A stretch of 36,452 nt of DNA from Lobulomyces angularis. Its lineage: Eukaryota; Chytridiomycota; Chytridiomycetes; Lobulomycetales; Lobulomycetaceae. The position numbers were made by a program, and so were the translations under genes. Shown piece after piece: positions 15,497 through 25,897 of this stretch. Every line of letters begins with the position of its first letter. The stretch's first letter is position 1. Location of the stretch: assembly GCA_027604685.1 (NCBI GenBank), contig JADHYX010000200.1, positions 1 to 36,452 on the forward strand. Reading direction: 5' to 3'. Below the pieces are notes generated by a model. The model saw nothing but the letters and a program-made list of their open reading frames with translations, searched no databases and had not been told where the DNA came from.

Positions 15497-18400
15497 ATGG
15501 GACATCGACCATCAAAGCAGCTGGAGTCCCCATCAACTCCAACTGGAAAAGGTCAAAAAAAAAAAAACTCAAAAGACCATACTGGTACAGAAGATAATAC
15601 AAATTTTGCAACAACTTCAAAATCAAAAATATTGAACAACACCATTGCACCATCTTCAAAACCATTAGGTGACTTAATTTCTCCTCCAACTTCTGTTCAA
15701 AAATTAAACTCTGGAAACGAAGCAGCATCAGCTGCATCCAGCCAGGATAATGTAAGAGGTTCAAAAGATTCAATAAAGAAGAAAAAAGGTGGTGAAAAAA
15801 GTTCTAGACCTGAAATCGGTCCTGTTAAGCATGTAGATGAAGCAACGAGGGAAAAGTTGGGAATGGGCCTCACAAATAACATGCCGGCTGAATCTGAAGT
15901 TAATGCACTTTTTGAAGAATTTTTGGTATTATCAAACCAGTAAATTTGAGAATTTTTTTTTACATGCAAATTTTCAACATAGCAAGGGCTAGCATTACCT
16001 GAATCCAAATGCATACCTATGCGTCTAATGCCTTATGATAAAAAATGGATGCTAGTTCAGCAACAAAAATCTAAAGATCAACCTGTTAAGGTAAAATTTC
16101 TTGTGAAATTCGAATTAGTTTACAAAAAAATAATATTGACAATTTTTGAAATTTAATATGTCCATATTTAGCCAAAAGATTTACATAGTCCGTTAAGCCC
16201 ACAGTCCCCAAAGCGAGAACCTTTCCAATTTGTTGAATTATTGGAGGAAGAGGATTTGGGAAATATTGAAATTGGAAGAGAATTGCAATCTTTAGAAGTT
16301 TCCTTACGAACTGAGCCGATAAAGTACTGAAAAAATATTTTACTTATTTTTATTAAAATAATTTATTTAGTTGGGTTAAAGAATTCGTAAAAAGTGGAGG
16401 ATGTGAAGTTTTACTAAAAGTTATGAAGAGATATAGTCTAAAAACAACGTAAAGTTATACAATTATAATCGAAAATAACACTTTTAATAATAAATTAAAA
16501 AAAGACTTGCTAATTCGGAAAGGGATTGTCAAGCACACTCCGTTAGAGCTATAAAAGCAATGATGAATAACAGCATTGGACTTCAAGCCATGCTGACAAT
16601 CAACGATGCGATTAACATTTTAGCAATGGGTTTAACATCATCAATAATTAAAGTGAAAACTTCTACTCTGGAAATGATGGCAGCAGTCTGTTTTGTCCCT
16701 AATGGGCATAAGTTGATCCTAATTGCAATGGAAGCTCTAAAAGAAATCAAAAAGGAAACGTTTAGATTCTCCAAACTGATGGAAAGCCTTGTCGACAAAA
16801 CACTCGAAAGCGGGACTGAAAGTGCTGCTTATTTGGAATACCAAGTAAGGAAGAATTATATATGCTTCAATTAAAAAACATTCCTATACAACCAAAAAAA
16901 ATTAGATTGCCTGTGTTGCATTTTTAAACGCCATTGTAAATACTCCAGAAGATTTGGATTTTAGAGTTTCACTGAGAAATGAATTGATGCAGTTAGGAAT
17001 AGCTTCAGCAATTCTAGAACTTAAAAAAAACGATAACGAAGAATTGAATACTCAATTAAGTATCTTTGAAGAAGAAGGTGTTGCCGATATTGATGCATTT
17101 TATGAAGATCTTGAAGCAGAAGGTTTGGATTTACAGGACCCAGATGCAGTATTTGATAAAGTTAAGAGTAATATTCCTGATTCAGACTCATATCAATGGT
17201 TTGTTAGAGTTATACAGGGACTACTTTCTATACCTAGGGACAAATATAGAAGGTGAAAAACTCACATTTTTAATTTTTATTTTTTTAATACTTTTATTAA
17301 ATTTGTTAAATTGTTTTTTCATTAAAAGCCCTAAGTATTGGGAACTTTTAAGTATAATTGTAAGCCAGGTAGCTTTAGAAAGGAATGGTCTTGCACCAGA
17401 TATAACGAGATTTAACGTAAATGTGGAAAAATCTGTATCCCACTTGGTAACAACTGAAGAGTACGAAGTTCAAAAAGTTAATTTTGCCGCTTTAGAAAAT
17501 CAAATGGAAGAATGGAGAGCTAAAGTTGAAAATTGGGAAAGAAATGAAAAACTTTTGAGAGAATATAAAGAAATTTTAATTAGAAAAGATGAAGAATTAA
17601 GAAGATTAAAAGAAAACAACAAAAATTTAAATAATAACTCTAGCACAATTAAGGTAAAGGATACAGCCAAGCGTATGTCTAGCCAAATTAATGTAAATAA
17701 TGCAAATTCTACTGCGTCAGGGAATTCTTGTGTCGAAACTAGCAATTCGAGTTTAAATTCAACTACAGTTGACGAAAAAAAATCTAGTCAAAAAAATGCC
17801 ATTGTACCGGAAAAGACATCTAATAAAGTTATTGATGTTAATTTTGATTTTAAAAGTATTGTATTTCCTTTAAATATAAAAAAAGAGGAAGATTTAAAAC
17901 ATTTGGTTTTCGAGAAATACAACATAAATCTAACGGAAAATAAATTTAAAACGGCTGAAACCATAGATATCAACAATGCAAATAGCAATATACCCGCTAC
18001 GGCAGGTATTTTACCAGTGACTTTCATTCTTAATAAAAAAATTTTATTTTCATAGCCATATTATCTTCTAATTCTGGTAAATTATTAATAATCTTAAATG
18101 AAGTGTATCCATTTTTTCTATAGCACCACCTCCTCCTCCGCCTCCTTCTTTTGTATCAGGTTCAAAATTATATTTTTTTTAATAACTAAGTAAAAAATTA
18201 TTGTAGGACCTCCTCCAGCAATTTCCAAAAGTAACTTATATTTTAAATTTTTTTCTACTTGGCTCATTCAATCCCCAACTTTTTAATTTTAATAGTTGCC
18301 CCACCTCCACCACCTCCACCGTCTCATTCAGGTAAAGTTGAAGATTAAAAGTTGAACCTTGTAACCAAAATTTTTTTTTTATGCAGATTCAAACATCTTA

Positions 18401-21400
18401 AGTACATTGCCACGTAACAAAATTAAAATAAACTTCTTTCTTTTATATCTAAAATTATATAAAAAAAAATCTCTTAGCACCAGTTCCTGGTGAGTTAGAA
18501 TTTTTAATTTGTGAATTCTGAAGTAAAAAATTTTTTAGCACCGGCAGTAAATGGAGGGCCATTGCCGCGTAAGCAAAATATATCTTTCTTTATTAAAAAG
18601 TAAATTTTTTTTTTTATAAAAAAAATCAGCACCACGTAAGTTTGAAAAAATAAGGTTGCATAAAAGTATTAACGTTTAAAAAAAATTGTTAATGTAGCTC
18701 CTCCAGGAATGGGAGGACCACCACGTAAAAATATATTAAAAATGATAAGATCTATATTAAAATTTTTTTAAAAAAACTAAAAATTAGCACCTCCTCGTAT
18801 TTTAAAAATTTCTGTTATACTTTTTCTAATGTTCTAAACAATATTTGTTTCATAGCTCCACCAGGAAAATGTGGCCCACCACGTAAGATAGCAAAAACAA
18901 AAACTATAATTAATTATAATAATTTTCTTTTGTTAATTATAATTTACAGCGCCTCCAGGTTCGTCAAGAATATAATTTTTAACTTTATTAAAAATGTTTT
19001 AAAATAGCTCCTCCAGGTATGGGTGGCCCACCACGTAAGATTAACTATATCTAACTGTTGCTTTAATTTTTTTTTTCTTTTATCTAAATTGTTTAGCACC
19101 TCCAGGTATACACGATTTGCAAAATTTTTTTCCCCTAATTTTTAATAGCACCACCAGGTATGGGTGGCCCACCACGTAAGATTATTATTATTGAGAAATG
19201 TTTCTTCACAAATTTACTCTTTTCCATTTTGAACTTTTCTAGCACCACCAGGTATAAATAATTTTATGTATTGTTTGTTTAGTTTCCATTATAGGTCCTC
19301 CACTACCGCCTGGAATGGGACCTGCAGTGATAGCTTCACCTGCGACTTTTGGTATAGTAATAAGAATTTGGCACTAATTATTATTGCAAAATAGGGTTTG
19401 AAAAACAAAAAGTACAACCAACTGTAAAAATGAGACAAATCCAATGGACAAAAATTGCACCAGTAAATTTAAATGCAACAATCTGGAAACCATTAGCAGA
19501 AAAAGGAAAGGATGGAGAAGAAAGAACCCGCAGGGAAAAAATCGATGTGAAGGAATTAGAATCGCTATTTTCTGTTCAGCCTATAAATAAAGCTGTTAGT
19601 GCAGGGGAAGTTTTATCTAACAAAGAAGTTAAGAACGAAGTGAAAAAAGTTAGTTTATTGGATGGTAAACGATCCAACAATGTTTGTAAGTTTTGAATGT
19701 TTAAGTTTTTGTTTAAGTGATTGATTTATTTCTATTTTATTTTTGGTATGACCTTTAGCTATAATGCTGGGAAGAATAAAGATTCCATTTAATAAAATTA
19801 GAGAGGCAATTATAAATCTAAATGAAGAAATTATTAGTGAATCAATGGTAAAACAATTTTTACAACAAATACCTGGTAAAAAATTTTACCAACTGATTTA
19901 ATTTTAATCTTTGAAAAAAATATCATTTTTAGCGGAAGACGAAATGTTTCTTTTAAAAGACTATGTAGGTACCAATGAAAACAAAGTGAAAGATTTACCG
20001 AAAGCTGAACAATTTTTTTGGGAGGTATTAATAAAAGTTTTATAAAGGTTCATTAAAAAAATTTCCCTTTTTGTTCTTACAGATGATGAAAATTCCAAGA
20101 TACGAACAAAAACTAGTGTCTTTAAATTTTAAAATGAAATTTTTTGAAAGAATTAGTGAATTAAGACCAGTAAATTTTTTTATTTGATAAGTTTTTAGAT
20201 ATTTAATTTAACACTTTTTTTTAGGAAATTGAAGTTGTAAATCAAGCGGCAATATATTTAAAAGAAAGCAAAAAAATATCAAAATTATTTGAGGTAAAAA
20301 TGTTCATAAAAATATAATTTTTTACTTAAAGGGCATTAGGTTATTTTAGCAATTGGAAATTATATGAATGGAGATACATTTAGAGGACAAGCTTTTGGTT
20401 TTTCCATTGATATTTTAACTAAAGTATTTTTTCTTTTTCATTGTTTTCAACCCAAAAATATTAACAATTGCTTAACATAATTTTTTTTTAATTTTTGCAG
20501 CTTGGAGATGTAAAATCAACTTCAGGAAAAACTACTTTATTATCATACTTGGTGACATTGATTGACAAAAAATTTCCAGAGTTAAAAGATTTAACCTCCG
20601 AAATGAGCTTTTTGGAAAAAGCTTCCAGAGTAAGTTTAATCACAATTAGTCAAGAAGTGGCAGAACTGGAAAAAGGATTGGAAAGATTGAAACTGGAAGT
20701 AGAGCAACAGAGTTTAATAAAAGGATGTGAAACTTTTTGTAAAGTGTTCAGAGAATTTTTAGAATGTAATTTGATCTTTTTTGAGGATTTAAAAAAAAAT
20801 AAACTTGAAATGGAACTCAACTTCAAATTTATTGTGAACTTTTTTGGTGAAGATCTTAAACTAAGTACACCTGAATCTTTCTTTGGAATTTTTAATACTT
20901 ATGTAATGGGATTTGAGGTTTTTATAATCTAGATATTTTAAATTTCGTAGTAAACTATTATTTTTTTTTTGAATTTTTTAGAAAGCAAAAAAAGACATCG
21001 AGAAGGATGCAGAAGCACAAAAAAAATTACTAGAAAAGGAGTTAAGGATTCAAGAAAAAGAAAAAGAAAAAGAAAAGAATGAAGAAATTTTAAAAAAGGT
21101 GAGCAAAAATGTTATGGAGAATTACTTATTGAATAAATATTATAATGCAGACAAGGGATTTGGAAAAAGAAAAAAGTCAAAACTTACTTCAAGAAGACAG
21201 AAAAGGAGTCATGGACGATTTAATTAACAGCTTAAAAACAGGTGATGCGTTCAAAGGTAAAGTAAAGAACCGACAAAGATCTAATTCGAAAGTGCTGAGT
21301 TCAACATCTAAATGCAATTCTTTGGTAAAAATTAAATAGAATTACTAATTTACTTATTTTGGCTTGTATAGGATGCAGAAAAATTATTAGCACAACTTAG

Positions 21401-21410
21401 CATAAAATAA
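15497..21410 (+). CDS. Diaphanous-related formin (GBD-FH3, FH1, FH2, DAD)
   Basis: Actin nucleator and elongator controlled by Rho GTPases. My 34-exon model closes exactly: 4011 nt, 1336 residues, ATG 15497, stop 21408-21410. Exons: 15497-15925, 15983-16090, 16172-16323, 16371-16448, 16505-16844, 16906-17252, 17329-18005, 17 micro-exons at 18056-19351, then 19395-19685, 19759-19875, 19933-20024, 20083-20169, 20225-20293, 20340-20423, 20501-20917, 20982-21098, 21151-21324, 21372-21410. Domains: basic Ser-rich N-terminus; GBD/FH3 from about residue 120 to 530 (LRTEPINWVKEFVKSGGCEV, then ERDCQAHSVRAIKAMMN); coiled coil near 560-610; FH1 about 711-841; FH2 about 850-1240 (IQWTKI, NNVSIMLGRIKIPFNKI, AIGNYMNGDTFRGQAFGF); DAD near 1285 (GVMDDLINSLKTGDAFKGK). 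GBD and DAD together imply autoinhibition released by a Rho protein. Yeast Bni1 has the same order. Confidence 0.93.
18056..19351 (+). repeat. array of 17 FH1 micro-exons, all phase 1
   Basis: Exons: 18056-18076, 18124-18159, 18207-18230, 18296-18331, 18387-18413, 18478-18489, 18539-18568, 18630-18635, 18698-18724, 18788-18796, 18856-18882, 18950-18958, 19008-19034, 19097-19105, 19149-19175, 19243-19251, 19295-19351. Every length is a multiple of three and every flanking intron is phase 1. From 18698 they alternate 27, 9, 27, 9, 27, 9, 27, 9 nt. The 27-nt exons encode variants of PPGMGGPPP, the 9-nt exons add PPP. The total is 393 coding nt in 1296 bp. The reading is supported by clear GT and AG ends and by frame closure on both sides. 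Splicing of each individual exon has not been shown. Confidence 0.85.
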
Positions 21411-22063: not shown

Positions 22064-23989
22064 ATGGTTTGTTGTGTATGCTTACTACAATGTGATGAAA
22101 TACCCTGTACACGGTGCAACATTCAACTTCACTCTCACTGCTCCATTTCTAATGAACATTGCTGTGTATGAAAGTTTTTTCATCTCTATGTTTAATTCTT
22201 TTCAGTCTTGGAAATTTTTGTATAATAATATCTTTCTTTCTAAAACTTATTAGGAATTGGATTTAACTTCTTGCGTTTTATGCTCTCAAAGACATGGGTA
22301 ATAAAAATTAAGAAATTTATTCTTTGTAACATTATTCAGTTCTTTTGTACGGGTTAAAAATGCTGATAATTTGGATACGTTTTGCCATATTGTTTGCTCT
22401 AAGTATATAAAAGAATGTGAGATTACTGATGATAACTTAATTGATATCAGTAATATTCCTCTTAGTTTATGGGAAGAGGTAAAAAGAAAGTAACCTCACT
22501 TTTTTTTTTTTAATACATAATTATGTATTTCTAATATTAAAATGTATATATTTTATTTTTAACACTACTTAGACACAATGCTCAATATGCTTTTCAGATT
22601 ATGGTGTTAAACTTCCCTGTGATGCATTTGGATGTAAAAATACCATTCATGTCACTTGGTAATACAATAAGTTAATTGTAAGCAATTTTTTTATTTAAAT
22701 CTTTTTTTTTTTTTTTTTTTAAGTGCTCAAAATTGGAATTTGTTGGTAAAGGATGTTGAAGTTAAAGAAGCACCAGATTTTATTTTCTGTAAATTTCATT
22801 CTTCTGGTGATCCAAAGGTACAATTTCAAGCAACTCTAATAATGTACCTCCATTTTTTTTTTAGAAAAACGAATACATCAAGTCAGTTGAAAAAGCAGAA
22901 CAAATTAGAAATAAAAAATTATCAGAAAAATCAAATATGGTAAAAACTGAAAAATTAAATTATGATCCAAGAATAATTATAAAATCACAACTTGCAAATT
23001 GGTTTAAAAGTGTTGATGAACATCAGTTTTTTTTGAATTCCAATTACTTTTTCAGATTAAGTGAAAAAAAATTTATTCAAAATCAGTTACCTTTTCAAAA
23101 AGAAATTTTACAAAATCACATTGAAGAACTGAAGGTAAAAAATAAAAAACTTTTGGAAATTTAAGTAACTCACTTTACAATGAATTTTTTTTTTTTTTTT
23201 TATCAATACATTTTGTTACTTTTGTCTTTAACAGAAAGTTGAAAGCACCCGTAAGGAGCTTGAAAAAGTTTTTAGTGAATTGAAAGTGAATTTTTTAAAA
23301 TCATTGCAAATTTTTGAAGAAAAAATTGAATCCACTGACACGAATACTTTAAATAACGAATTTGACAAAAAAAAAGAGGATAATTTAACAACTGACCAGT
23401 TTGATTTAGTTTTTGAAAAGTTTATCAAATTTCATGAAAATTTTACTTTAAAAAAAAATACAAATAAAGATTTAGCCGACATTGAAATGTTTAAAAAATG
23501 TTTCAAAACTCATCTGAACTCAAAATCGAAGCTGAATTTAAAAAAATATCAGGATTTTTCCAAAATGATAAAGTTTGATGCTTTAATAAAAAACGAGGAA
23601 ATTGCACCATTGAGGAAAAATTCCAATTTAAAGATTAAGAAAAGAAAAATTGATGAAATTTTTACCAGTGAGGCTAGCATTTGTAACATTTGTTTAACTT
23701 TCAAAGGAAATAATTTAAGTGAAAAAATGACAAGGTAAAATATTACATATATATGTATATTCAATTTTTTGTATTTTAACAAATTCTCTAAATTATTTTT
23801 ATATGTAGGTTTATAAAATGTGAAGATTGTAAAAAGCTTTTTCATTTTGGATGTTTAGATCCACCTATGAAAAGACTGCAGAAATGGTATACATGGAATT
23901 GCCAAAATTGCGTTCAAAGAAATTTGAATTTAAGTTCAGATGAAGGATCTGCTGAAGTCTTGAATGAAAAAAAGCAAGAAAGTGGCTAA
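22064..23989 (+). CDS. PHD-finger protein, PHF14-like
   Basis: Probable chromatin reader. ATG 22064, stop 23987-23989. An N-terminal PHD-type zinc finger starts at residue 3 (CCVCLLQCDEIPCTRCNIQL, HSHC). It runs directly into an extended PHD: ELDLTSCVLCSQRHGSFVRV, then FCHIVCSKY, QCSICFSDYGVKLPC, GCKNTIHVTCAQNWNLL and FCKFH. A long Lys/Glu-rich helical middle follows. The third finger is at about 23670-23920 (SICNICLTFKG, IKCEDCKKLFHFGCLDPP, WNCQNC). The PHD - ePHD - coiled coil - PHD order, and HVTCAQ and FHFGCLDPP in particular, match animal PHF14 best; JADE/BRPF-type proteins are the alternative. The N-terminus is very short before the first Cys, so upstream exons may be missing. The last exon could extend in another frame (KKVAKCLQLLEEGAK, stop near 24022) if an A run at 23967 were one base shorter. 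Confidence 0.85.
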
Positions 23990-24829
23990 ATGTTTGCAAT
24001 TACTAGAAGAAGGTGCTAAGTAAAGATATCTGTGGAATTGTGAATAAATACTTGAGCAATTAAAAACTAATTACAAATGGTGCAAGTAGAGGAAAACGCG
24101 TCTAAAATTTTTCTTTCACTGTTTGTGTTTTAAATTTTTCATTTATTATCAATTTTTCTTCAATTTTTTATTATTTATAGACTAGATTTAATTAATGCAT
24201 ATCCTGTAAAGTTTTTAACCAAAAAAAACGAATTGCCCTTTACGAAAAAAAAAAAAATTCTCTAAAATGAATAACAAAATCAATCAATATTTGAATCTTA
24301 AAAAAGCTATACCAACGTTTAGGTGAAGATTCGAAAAACTCAAAAGTTTTTCTTAAACACTTTAACCCAATTGCAGAGTTTCTCAAAATTTTTATAATTT
24401 AATAGATTAAACTGGAATTTTTTTAAATTCTTAAATTTTTAATTCTATAAGGAAAAATTATTAAGGGTCGTATTGTAGTGGAGAAATACTGTTATGCTTA
24501 CACTGAAAATAACTTTACCATTTCAAAGGAAAAGTTTATTTAAATCACTATGGATTATTGCATAAAAAATTTGCAAGTTTTGAATGCATTTGGAACTGAA
24601 AATTTTACTCTCTTTTTAAATAAAATTTGTTGTGTCACTTGAAATTGAAAAAGTTACTTTTTTAGATAGCATATTTCATACATCTGCTCTACGTCACAAA
24701 AATTAACCATTTACTGTTGTGTTGTATTTTTACATATTACTACACTTTTGTACACTTTTGTACACTACTAATTTACCTACATAACCCATTTACCTACACT
24801 ACCCATTACCTATCAAAAATGAAAAAAAA
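23990..24829. other. intergenic spacer with short direct repeats at its end
   Basis: AT-rich DNA between the PHF14-like and LRR genes. No open frame of note. The last 90 bp, just before the LRR gene, are a run of short repeats (listed separately). Confidence 0.5.
24741..24813 (+). repeat. short tandem repeats just upstream of the LRR gene
   Basis: The ten-base unit TACACTTTTG occurs twice in a row and then begins a third time (TACACTAC). It is followed by two copies of a 17-base unit starting ATTTACCTACA and ending CCC, and a partial third. They lie 6-80 bp upstream of the LRR start and could be promoter or 5'-leader sequence, or a slippage product. Confidence 0.7.
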
Positions 24830-25897
24830 TTGCGAAACTCCATACGAATTATAAGTTCACATTCTAAAATCACAAAGATTGAAAATTTACCTAGTAATTT
24901 ACAACATTTCGAATGTCACCATAATTTGATTAAGGAAATAGTAAATTTACCATCGACTTTATTACATTTTGACTGTAGTTTTAATCAAATTATAAAAATT
25001 GAAAGTTTACCTTTTTTTTTACTGCACTTTAACTGTAGTTATAATCAAATTAAAAAAATTGAAAACTTACCTAGTTTTTTACAAGATTTTTATTGTGAAG
25101 GAAATCAATTTACAAAAGTTGAAAATTTACCTAGTAGTTTAAAGCATTTTGAATGTTCTTATACCCAAATTACCAAAATTGAAAATTTGCCCAGCACTTT
25201 ACTATATCTCGGTTGTGAAGGTAATCAACTTACAAAAATTGAAAATTTACCTTGCTCATTATTAAAATTTGACTGTATTCGTAATTGTATTACAAAAATT
25301 CAACATTTACCTATAAATTTACAATGTTTTATTTGTTCTTTTAATTTAATTACAAAAATTGAAAATTTACCCTTTTCTTTAAAGAATTTTCGTTGTTCCA
25401 GTAATAAAATATCAAAAATTGAAAATTTACCAAGTTCTTTAGTAACTTTTCACTGCTGTTTTAACCAAATCACAAAAATTGAAAATTTACCAAATAGTTT
25501 AGTACATTTTGACTGTGACGATAATCAAATCACGAGAATTGAGAATTTACCTTGTACTTTATTAGAATTTTGCTGCAGCAATAACCCAATTACTAAAATT
25601 GAAAATTTACCAATGGGTTTAACCGATTTTTTAATAGATGAAGAAATAACTGAGTTTGTGGATAATGTACCCTATAAAGGATTATATTTTGTGTTAGAAA
25701 GATATCAAGCAATTAAGAGAATGCAATTGAGAATAAAGCGAAGACATAAATACAAAATCAAGGCAATAAGAACAATCCAAGCAGGTTGTCATAACTGGGT
25801 CTGGAAGCCTCTTTGTAAAGATGGTACATCTGGGATAAGGCCAAGATTAGATTTAATACATTTAAATATAGACTGTAAAAGAAGAAAATTATCCTAG
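24830..25897 (+). CDS. leucine-rich repeat protein, 20-residue units, giant-virus-like
   Basis: The longest uninterrupted frame in the window: 355 codons, no intron. Residues 14-273 are thirteen tandem 20-residue repeats of consensus ITKIENLPssLxxFxCsxNq, with Leu, Ile, Cys and Asn at fixed places. A non-repeat C-terminal domain follows: basic helix (MQLRIKRRHKYKIKAIRTIQ), then AGCHNWVWKPLCKDGTSGI and RPRLDL. To my recollection, 20-residue repeats built on xLPxxLxxLxCxxN, capped by an IQxGCxNWxWKP motif, are common in large DNA viruses of protists and rare in fungi, so acquisition from such a virus is a reasonable inference. Dictyostelium-type FNIP or bacterial LRRs are alternatives. The frame begins with TTG; the nearest ATG (24819) is out of frame by one base across a run of eight A. 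Function is probably protein-protein binding. Confidence 0.85.
   Translation: MRNSIRIISSHSKITKIENLPSNLQHFECHHNLIKEIVNLPSTLLHFDCSFNQIIKIESLPFFLLHFNCSYNQIKKIENLPSFLQDFYCEGNQFTKVENLPSSLKHFECSYTQITKIENLPSTLLYLGCEGNQLTKIENLPCSLLKFDCIRNCITKIQHLPINLQCFICSFNLITKIENLPFSLKNFRCSSNKISKIENLPSSLVTFHCCFNQITKIENLPNSLVHFDCDDNQITRIENLPCTLLEFCCSNNPITKIENLPMGLTDFLIDEEITEFVDNVPYKGLYFVLERYQAIKRMQLRIKRRHKYKIKAIRTIQAGCHNWVWKPLCKDGTSGIRPRLDLIHLNIDCKRRKLS
24869..25648 (+). repeat. thirteen tandem 60-bp repeats encoding LRR units
   Basis: The repeat is exactly 60 bp with no indels over 780 bp. The segment coding for KIENLP is the best conserved at DNA level (AAAATTGAAAATTTACC in most units), while the x positions differ. 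This suggests in-frame duplication with some later homogenisation. Confidence 0.92.

What the first reader, a model, noticed from the sequence alone, without database searches (positions are those of the whole stretch)
18056..19351. FH1 domain of a formin built from 17 skippable micro-exons
The proline-rich FH1 is normally encoded in one or a few exons. Here it is cut into 17 exons of 6-57 nt, each a multiple of three, each flanked by phase-1 introns, together giving a perfect frame into FH2. Any combination could be skipped or included without frameshift, so one gene could make formins with many different numbers of polyproline tracts. FH1 length affects profilin-actin delivery and elongation rate, so splicing could set actin assembly speed. 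This is the best candidate for an undescribed system in the window.
Basis: partly seen in the sequence, partly recalled or inferred. Interest (0 to 1): 0.92.

Follow-up and report, generated by a model that had tools for sequence, protein, structure and literature searches.

The report
Micro-exon array encoding formin FH1
In a chytrid fungus, the proline-rich stretch of an actin-building protein is cut into 17 tiny exons that keep the reading frame whichever are joined, and other genes of the same fungus are built the same way; whether cells really skip these exons is unknown.

Summary
Window 15497-21410 (+) is a 34-exon formin gene (GBD-FH3-FH1-FH2). Its FH1 consists of 17 exons of 6-57 nt at exactly 18056-19351; all 18 flanking introns are phase 1, 43-67 nt. 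A public gene model has the identical FH1; shuffles come nowhere near it.

New: it is not a one-off. A second formin (C11) has 20 such internal FH1 exons and a proline-rich protein of unknown function (C1) has 11; with three further genes, all 54 exons modelled are multiples of three, read in phase 1. In C1 the 90-bp exon+intron unit is recently tandem-duplicated (introns up to 100% identical).

"Skippable" is formally true: none of 131,072 subsets has a stop. But nothing shows skipping: splice-site scores do not differ significantly from the rest of the gene, introns are short, and reported exon skipping in fungi is comparatively low. Best reading: mostly constitutive splicing of an array that grew by unit duplication, in which exon skipping would be frame-neutral. 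The organism is a Lobulomycetaceae chytrid; public labels conflict. No RNA was available.

The parts
15497..21410 (+). formin gene, 34 exons, 1,336 codons plus stop
   Evidence: spliced frame open throughout; identical to public protein P0001 over residues 1-1324
15881..17407 (+). Drf_GBD and Drf_FH3 domains (exons 1-7, residues 129-511)
   Evidence: 126.8 and 132.6 bits, cut-offs 30.1 and 27
18056..18076 (+). FH1 micro-exon 1, 21 nt, AILSSNS
18124..18159 (+). FH1 micro-exon 2, 36 nt, APPPPPPPSFVS
18207..18230 (+). FH1 micro-exon 3, 24 nt, GPPPAISK
18296..18331 (+). FH1 micro-exon 4, 36 nt, IAPPPPPPPSHS
18387..18413 (+). FH1 micro-exon 5, 27 nt, DSNILSTLP
18478..18489 (+). FH1 micro-exon 6, 12 nt, PPVP
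18539..18568 (+). FH1 micro-exon 7, 30 nt, APAVNGGPLP
18630..18635 (+). FH1 micro-exon 8, 6 nt, PP
18698..18724 (+). FH1 micro-exon 9, 27 nt, PPPGMGGPP
   Evidence: one of 4 copies of a 46-nt repeat that includes both splice sites
18788..18796 (+). FH1 micro-exon 10, 9 nt, PPP
18856..18882 (+). FH1 micro-exon 11, 27 nt, PPPGKCGPP
18950..18958 (+). FH1 micro-exon 12, 9 nt, PPP
19008..19034 (+). FH1 micro-exon 13 (exon 20 of the gene), 27 nt, APPGMGGPP; internal in-frame donor at 19017
19097..19105 (+). FH1 micro-exon 14, 9 nt, PPP
19149..19175 (+). FH1 micro-exon 15 (exon 22 of the gene), 27 nt, APPGMGGPP; internal in-frame donor at 19158
19243..19251 (+). FH1 micro-exon 16, 9 nt, PPP
19295..19351 (+). 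FH1 micro-exon 17, 57 nt, GPPLPPGMGPAVIASPATF
19403..20908 (+). FH2 domain (residues 845-1224, exons 25-31)
   Evidence: 307.2 bits, cut-off 34.8; nearest solved chains DAAM1 2z6e and 2j1d
21205..21249 (+). DAD-like segment (residues 1285-1299)
   Evidence: Drf_DAD 17.3 bits, below cut-off 27.3

Best explanation
The gene is a Diaphanous/DAAM-type formin whose FH1 is encoded by 17 phase-1 symmetric micro-exons. Proline-rich regions in this chytrid grow by tandem duplication of a short exon together with its short intron (seen directly in the C1 gene; inferred for the formins). Because every unit begins and ends at the same point of a codon, mostly after the first base of a Pro, Ala or Gly codon, each added or lost unit keeps the frame and most add or remove prolines. 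In the mRNA the short introns are recognised one at a time (intron definition), so the micro-exons are normally all included and the main product carries seven tracts of 5 or more prolines that feed profilin-actin to FH2. Occasional skipping or use of an in-frame internal donor would keep the frame and could give minor length isoforms. Shown: exon structure, phases, frame neutrality, recurrence in six genes, recent unit duplication in C1. Inferred: constitutive inclusion, duplication origin of the formin arrays, profilin function.
For: Exons, phases and open frame; null models; identical public FH1; domains. Density 18 introns per 393 nt of FH1 against 15 per 3,618 nt elsewhere in the gene; phases outside FH1 are 0:10, 2:3, 1:2. 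Same architecture in C11 (20 of 20) and C1 (11 of 11) (whole-gene frames) and in C515, C147 and C296 (6 of 6 exons multiples of three between AG and GT; the phase-1 frame was imposed). C1 unit: period 90 bp, 6.5 copies, 88% matches; introns 71-100% identical among 7 units, three of them 100%. In the window, 4 copies of a 46-nt repeat spanning acceptor, 27-nt exon and donor, 141-158 nt apart, 76-91% like the reference copy. A near-identical relative's protein has 5 rather than 8 C1 units. Inclusion: FH1 sites not significantly weaker than the others, equal median intron length of 57 nt; low exon skipping in fungi (PMC6142364). Retention of any of the 18 introns brings a stop (13) or a frameshift (5).
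Against: No RNA data. Introns of the formin arrays are no more alike than shuffled ones, so duplication there rests on similarity of exons and their edges and could be old, or the introns could have been inserted separately. The donor mean is lower in FH1 (5.57 against 6.38), though not significantly, with a coarse matrix from 133 uncurated introns, 2 of which are among the 15 comparison introns. In two 27-nt exons an internal donor scores higher than the annotated one (5.7 against 4.1). The public model of the near-identical C11 gene leaves out three micro-exons and truncates a fourth (my reading). The fewer C1 units in the relative could be assembly collapse or a gene-calling effect.
Confidence: 0.7

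Rival explanations
1. One reading: the array is a combinatorial splicing device; exons are skipped in regulated ways so that one gene makes formins with different numbers of proline tracts and different elongation rates.
For: All 131,072 subsets open, 0-7 tracts, 78,336 distinct proteins; same design in other proline-rich genes; schistosome micro-exon genes use small symmetric exons this way (PMC4350168, passages); a yeast Bni1p variant with fewer tracts elongates more slowly (PMC11773026, passages).
Against: Splice sites not significantly weaker than in the rest of the gene, introns short, skipping would need 114-156 nt introns; low exon skipping in fungi; skipping three of the four 9-nt exons does not change the tract count.
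Confidence: 0.15
2. Alternative donor use rather than exon skipping is the main variable: the internal CAG|GTATGG sites of two 27-nt exons shorten them to 9 nt, still phase 1, moving proline tracts by 6 residues.
For: In-frame internal donors at 19017 and 19158 score 5.7 against 4.1 for the annotated ones; the public C11-type model appears to use such a site in a 33-nt exon (my reading).
Against: The public model of the window gene uses the full-length exons; the donor matrix comes from only 133 uncurated introns.
Confidence: 0.08
3. The introns arose one by one at proto-splice sites: Pro-Gly coded as CCA GGT contains AG|GT at phase 1, so insertion or internal duplication in a Pro/Gly-rich region gives phase-1 introns by necessity, without exon duplication and without selection for skippability.
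For: Formin introns show no mutual similarity beyond shuffles; most boundaries fall in Pro, Ala or Gly codons. The proto-splice idea itself is recalled, not tested.
Against: The 27/9-nt alternation and the 46-nt repeats that include splice sites; direct unit duplication in C1.
Confidence: 0.07

Closest known systems
Schistosome micro-exon genes (MEGs)
   Same: most of a coding stretch made of very small symmetric exons; [quoted passage not shown]
   Different: MEG products are secreted or gland-associated proteins of a flatworm and their alternative splicing is reported; here a cytoskeletal protein of a fungus, only its FH1, splicing untested
Diaphanous/DAAM-type formins
   Same: GBD, FH3, FH1, FH2 order and family scores; DAAM1 is the nearest solved FH2
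   Different: FH1 broken into 17 (window) and 20 (C11) internal small exons; exon structure of other formins was not examined here
Titin PEVK and elastin exon arrays (recalled; only a search listing seen)
   Same: runs of short symmetric exons coding low-complexity protein (recalled)
   Different: animal genes with longer introns (recalled); here introns of 43-67 nt

Membership tests
Diaphanous-related formin | FH2 domain | tested here: met
   307.2 bits, cut-off 34.8
Diaphanous-related formin | N-terminal GBD and FH3 | tested here: met
   126.8 and 132.6 bits, over cut-offs 30.1 and 27
Diaphanous-related formin | proline-rich FH1 next to FH2 | tested here: met
   63 prolines in a 148-residue stretch that holds the 131 FH1 residues; 7 tracts of 5 or more
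Diaphanous-related formin | C-terminal DAD | tested here: inconclusive
   17.3 bits, below cut-off 27.3
Micro-exon gene (MEG) architecture | small symmetric exons | tested here: met
   17 of 17 multiples of three, phase 1
Micro-exon gene (MEG) architecture | most of the coding sequence in such exons | tested here: not met
   393 of 4,011 coding nt
Micro-exon gene (MEG) architecture | alternative splicing yields protein variants | not testable with these tools
   no RNA data

The most novel reading that the evidence does not exclude
In this chytrid lineage proline-rich regions, actin regulators among them, are built as cassettes of interchangeable phase-1 micro-exons that expand and contract by unit duplication and are also sampled combinatorially in splicing, so that one formin gene yields a population of proteins with 0-7 profilin-binding tracts and splicing tunes the speed of actin assembly.
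Probability: 0.14. Interest if true: 0.88.

Novelty: new variant of a known kind. Interest (0 to 1): 0.6.

Why it matters
It points to a route, other than codon slippage, by which proline-rich regions of actin regulators can lengthen: whole exon-intron units that keep the frame. It offers a compact natural test of two questions: how a spliceosome handles 6-9 nt exons between introns of about 43-67 nt, and whether FH1 tract number is tuned in living cells by splicing. One long-read cDNA experiment would decide between the readings.

Tried and rejected
Rejected: chance or mis-read frame (null models); one large intron or retention (retained introns would break the frame; the public model splices the stretch as I do); a shared, introner-like intron sequence in the formin arrays (intron identity equals shuffled). 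Weakened splice sites were sought and not clearly found (donor mean lower but p=0.53). The de novo intron set (138, 73 and 37 introns at three flank lengths, phase 1 in 65, 41 and 22) comes from the window and 24 loci, all chosen for formin or polyproline content, so its phase-1 excess is not a genome-wide baseline. I considered the public C11-type model (P0033) as evidence of skipping and dropped it: the same model retains an intron inside FH2, so it looks like gene-caller error.

Coverage of the polyproline scan: one search gave 78 matches to six CCN codons (a lower bound by its own note). Of the 20 stretches fetched for those not already held, only C1 and C296 were modelled; C102 (a RhoGAP domain and a WH2-like segment below its cut-off) looked similar but was not modelled; the others were only read by eye, several lying in longer exons or looking like antisense runs. 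So the 54 exons are those I chose to model, not a rate.

Literature: 10 searches. The search for formin + FH1 + microexon returned one paper, on schistosome gene expression (listing seen only). In these searches I saw no report of a micro-exon FH1; many subscription papers are not in this library, so absence there is weak evidence.
Full report
OBSERVATION. I spliced the whole gene. It runs from 15497 to 21410 on the + strand in 34 exons and gives 1,336 codons and a stop. Exons 8-24 are the 17 FH1 micro-exons, 18056-19351, lengths 21,36,24,36,27,12,30,6,27,9,27,9,27,9,27,9,57 nt, 393 nt in all. All 18 introns that flank them are GT..AG, 43-67 nt, phase 1. Outside FH1 the 15 other introns have phases 0:10, 2:3, 1:2, and the intron density is 4.1 per kb of coding sequence against 45.8 in FH1.

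NOT CHANCE. The best chain of phase-1 symmetric exons in 18006-19394 reads 54 CCN codons in 16 exons. In 200 dinucleotide shuffles the maximum was 8 codons and 4 exons; the reverse complement gave 2 codons in 1 exon; 24 other + strand stretches of the window gave at most 4 codons. A public protein (P0001) carries the same FH1 residue for residue. It departs from my model only after residue 1324, where it leaves out the last exon and continues into the next gene. How that model was made is not known to me.

WHAT THE GENE IS. Pfam: FH2 307.2 bits, Drf_FH3 132.6, Drf_GBD 126.8, all over cut-off; Drf_DAD 17.3, under its cut-off of 27.3. The nearest solved FH2 is DAAM1. Of the 32 proteins found with the FH2-tail region, the 16 after P0001 are 38-46% identical; 14 of them are named, all zoosporic fungi (chytrids, Piromyces, Paraphysoderma; group membership recalled).

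WHICH ORGANISM. The labels conflict. The window formin is 100% identical over the searched region to a record named Lobulomyces angularis. The C11 formin of the same genome matches a Clydaea vesicula record: 1,110 identical residues and one clear substitution, the other differences following exon choice. The C1 protein matches Clydaea vesicula HK099_003816 with three substitutions outside the array, but a Lobulomyces angularis record (P0153) at only 59%. Searching the window's own genome with P0153 gave the C1 gene at 41-60% and one weak 30% match on C291, so no near-identical copy. Both species are in Lobulomycetaceae. I call it a Lobulomycetaceae chytrid, Clydaea vesicula or close kin. A small-subunit rRNA search did not complete.

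THE ARCHITECTURE RECURS. The FH2 search of the genome showed formin regions on C11, C16, C147 and C515 besides the window. C11 encodes a second GBD-FH3-FH1-FH2 formin (my model: 1,144 codons in 34 exons, its 3' end not modelled; the matching public record carries those three Pfam domains). Its FH1 has 20 internal exons of 9-96 nt, 19 of them 33 nt or less, 20 of 20 multiples of three in phase 1. A scan for runs of six CCN codons gave 78 matches; 20 stretches were fetched for those not already held. One, on C1, holds a 915-aa protein with no Pfam match in the parts tested. A search with its later part found 12 proteins, its own near-identical record included; 9 name an organism, all chytrids (group membership recalled). 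It has 11 internal exons of 24-45 nt, 11 of 11 phase 1. C515 (3 exons), C147 (1) and a gene with a WH2 motif on C296 (2) add 6 of 6 multiples of three between AG and GT, read in an imposed phase-1 frame without stops. Total: 54 of 54 modelled. These were chosen because they looked like phase-1 proline-rich exons, so this describes those arrays and is no rate over all polyproline exons; a few of the 54 hold little or no proline. C16 appears to have a single intron in its FH1 (by eye).

HOW THE ARRAYS GROW. In C1 the array is a tandem repeat of 90 bp, 6.5 copies, 88% matches, each unit being one 33-36 nt exon plus one 49-56 nt intron. Introns of 7 units are 71-100% identical, three of them 100%. 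A public protein of a near-identical genome has five such units where mine has eight; this may be copy-number change, assembly collapse or gene-calling. In the window, four copies of a 46-nt repeat hold the acceptor end, the 27-nt exon and the donor, 141-158 nt apart, but whole introns are no more alike than shuffled ones, in the window and in C11. So unit duplication is shown in C1 and inferred, as an older event, in the formins.

SKIPPABLE IN PRINCIPLE. No junction of any upstream exon with any downstream exon makes a stop: 0 of 171 in the window array, 0 of 231 in C11, 0 of 78 in C1. All 131,072 subsets of the 17 exons are open and give 78,336 distinct proteins with 0-7 tracts of 5 or more prolines and an FH1 of 0-131 residues. 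Losing any one of exons 2, 4, 7, 8, 9, 11, 13, 15 or 16 lowers the count from 7 to 6; losing any one of 1, 3, 5, 6, 10, 12, 14 or 17 leaves it at 7. Retaining any of the 18 introns brings a stop (13) or a frameshift (5).

SKIPPED IN FACT? No evidence. FH1 donors average 5.57 and the others 6.38 (p=0.53); acceptors 5.23 and 5.09 (p=0.99); median intron 57 nt in both. Skipping one exon would need an intron of 114-156 nt; the gene's introns are 43-81 nt. The score matrix comes from 133 uncurated introns, including 2 of the 15 comparison introns and none of the 18 FH1 ones, so this is a coarse test. Across 65 eukaryotes fungi have comparatively low exon skipping, and short exons between long introns are the ones prone to it (PMC6142364, passages and one section). 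With short introns on both sides, intron definition predicts inclusion (inference). In FH1 exons 13 and 15 an internal in-frame donor scores above the annotated one (5.7 against 4.1), so alternative donors are another possible source of variation. The public C11-type model (P0033), as I read it, skips three micro-exons and truncates one, but it also keeps an intron inside FH2, so I do not count it as evidence.

WHAT IT WOULD DO. FH1 tracts bind profilin and deliver actin to FH2; a yeast Bni1p variant with two tracts replaced elongates more slowly (PMC11773026, passages), and human FHOD3 with linkers in place of its FH1 tracts left heart muscle cells with very few sarcomeres (PMC12263155, passages). 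So unit number, whether changed by evolution or by splicing, should matter; this is inference for the chytrid protein.

VERDICT. The structure is real and striking. The broader and better supported finding is that proline-rich regions of several genes of this fungus are made of frame-neutral micro-exons that can multiply as exon-intron units. The regulatory splicing claim remains an untested possibility.

Noticed in passing
window 21372-21410 and 22251-23986: The public model P0001 skips the formin's last exon and continues into the next gene; its precomputed Pfam domains include PF13771 and PF13832 (PHD-like zinc fingers, names recalled). Probably two genes.
   Followed up: partly
window 24785-25897: An open frame with about 11 copies of a 60-bp repeat (67% matches) that looks like a leucine-rich-repeat unit (by eye).
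   Followed up: no
public records P0001, P0033, P0152, P0153: Records named Lobulomyces angularis and Clydaea vesicula both match this genome almost perfectly for different genes, while another L. angularis record is only 59% alike: possible mislabelling or cross-contamination of chytrid assemblies.
   Followed up: partly
L013:2622-3198: Young 90-bp exon-intron tandem array in a protein of unknown function with no Pfam match in the parts tested.
   Followed up: partly
L020 (C102): Gene region with a RhoGAP domain and a nearby WH2-like segment (below cut-off), with several polyproline blocks next to short introns.
   Followed up: no
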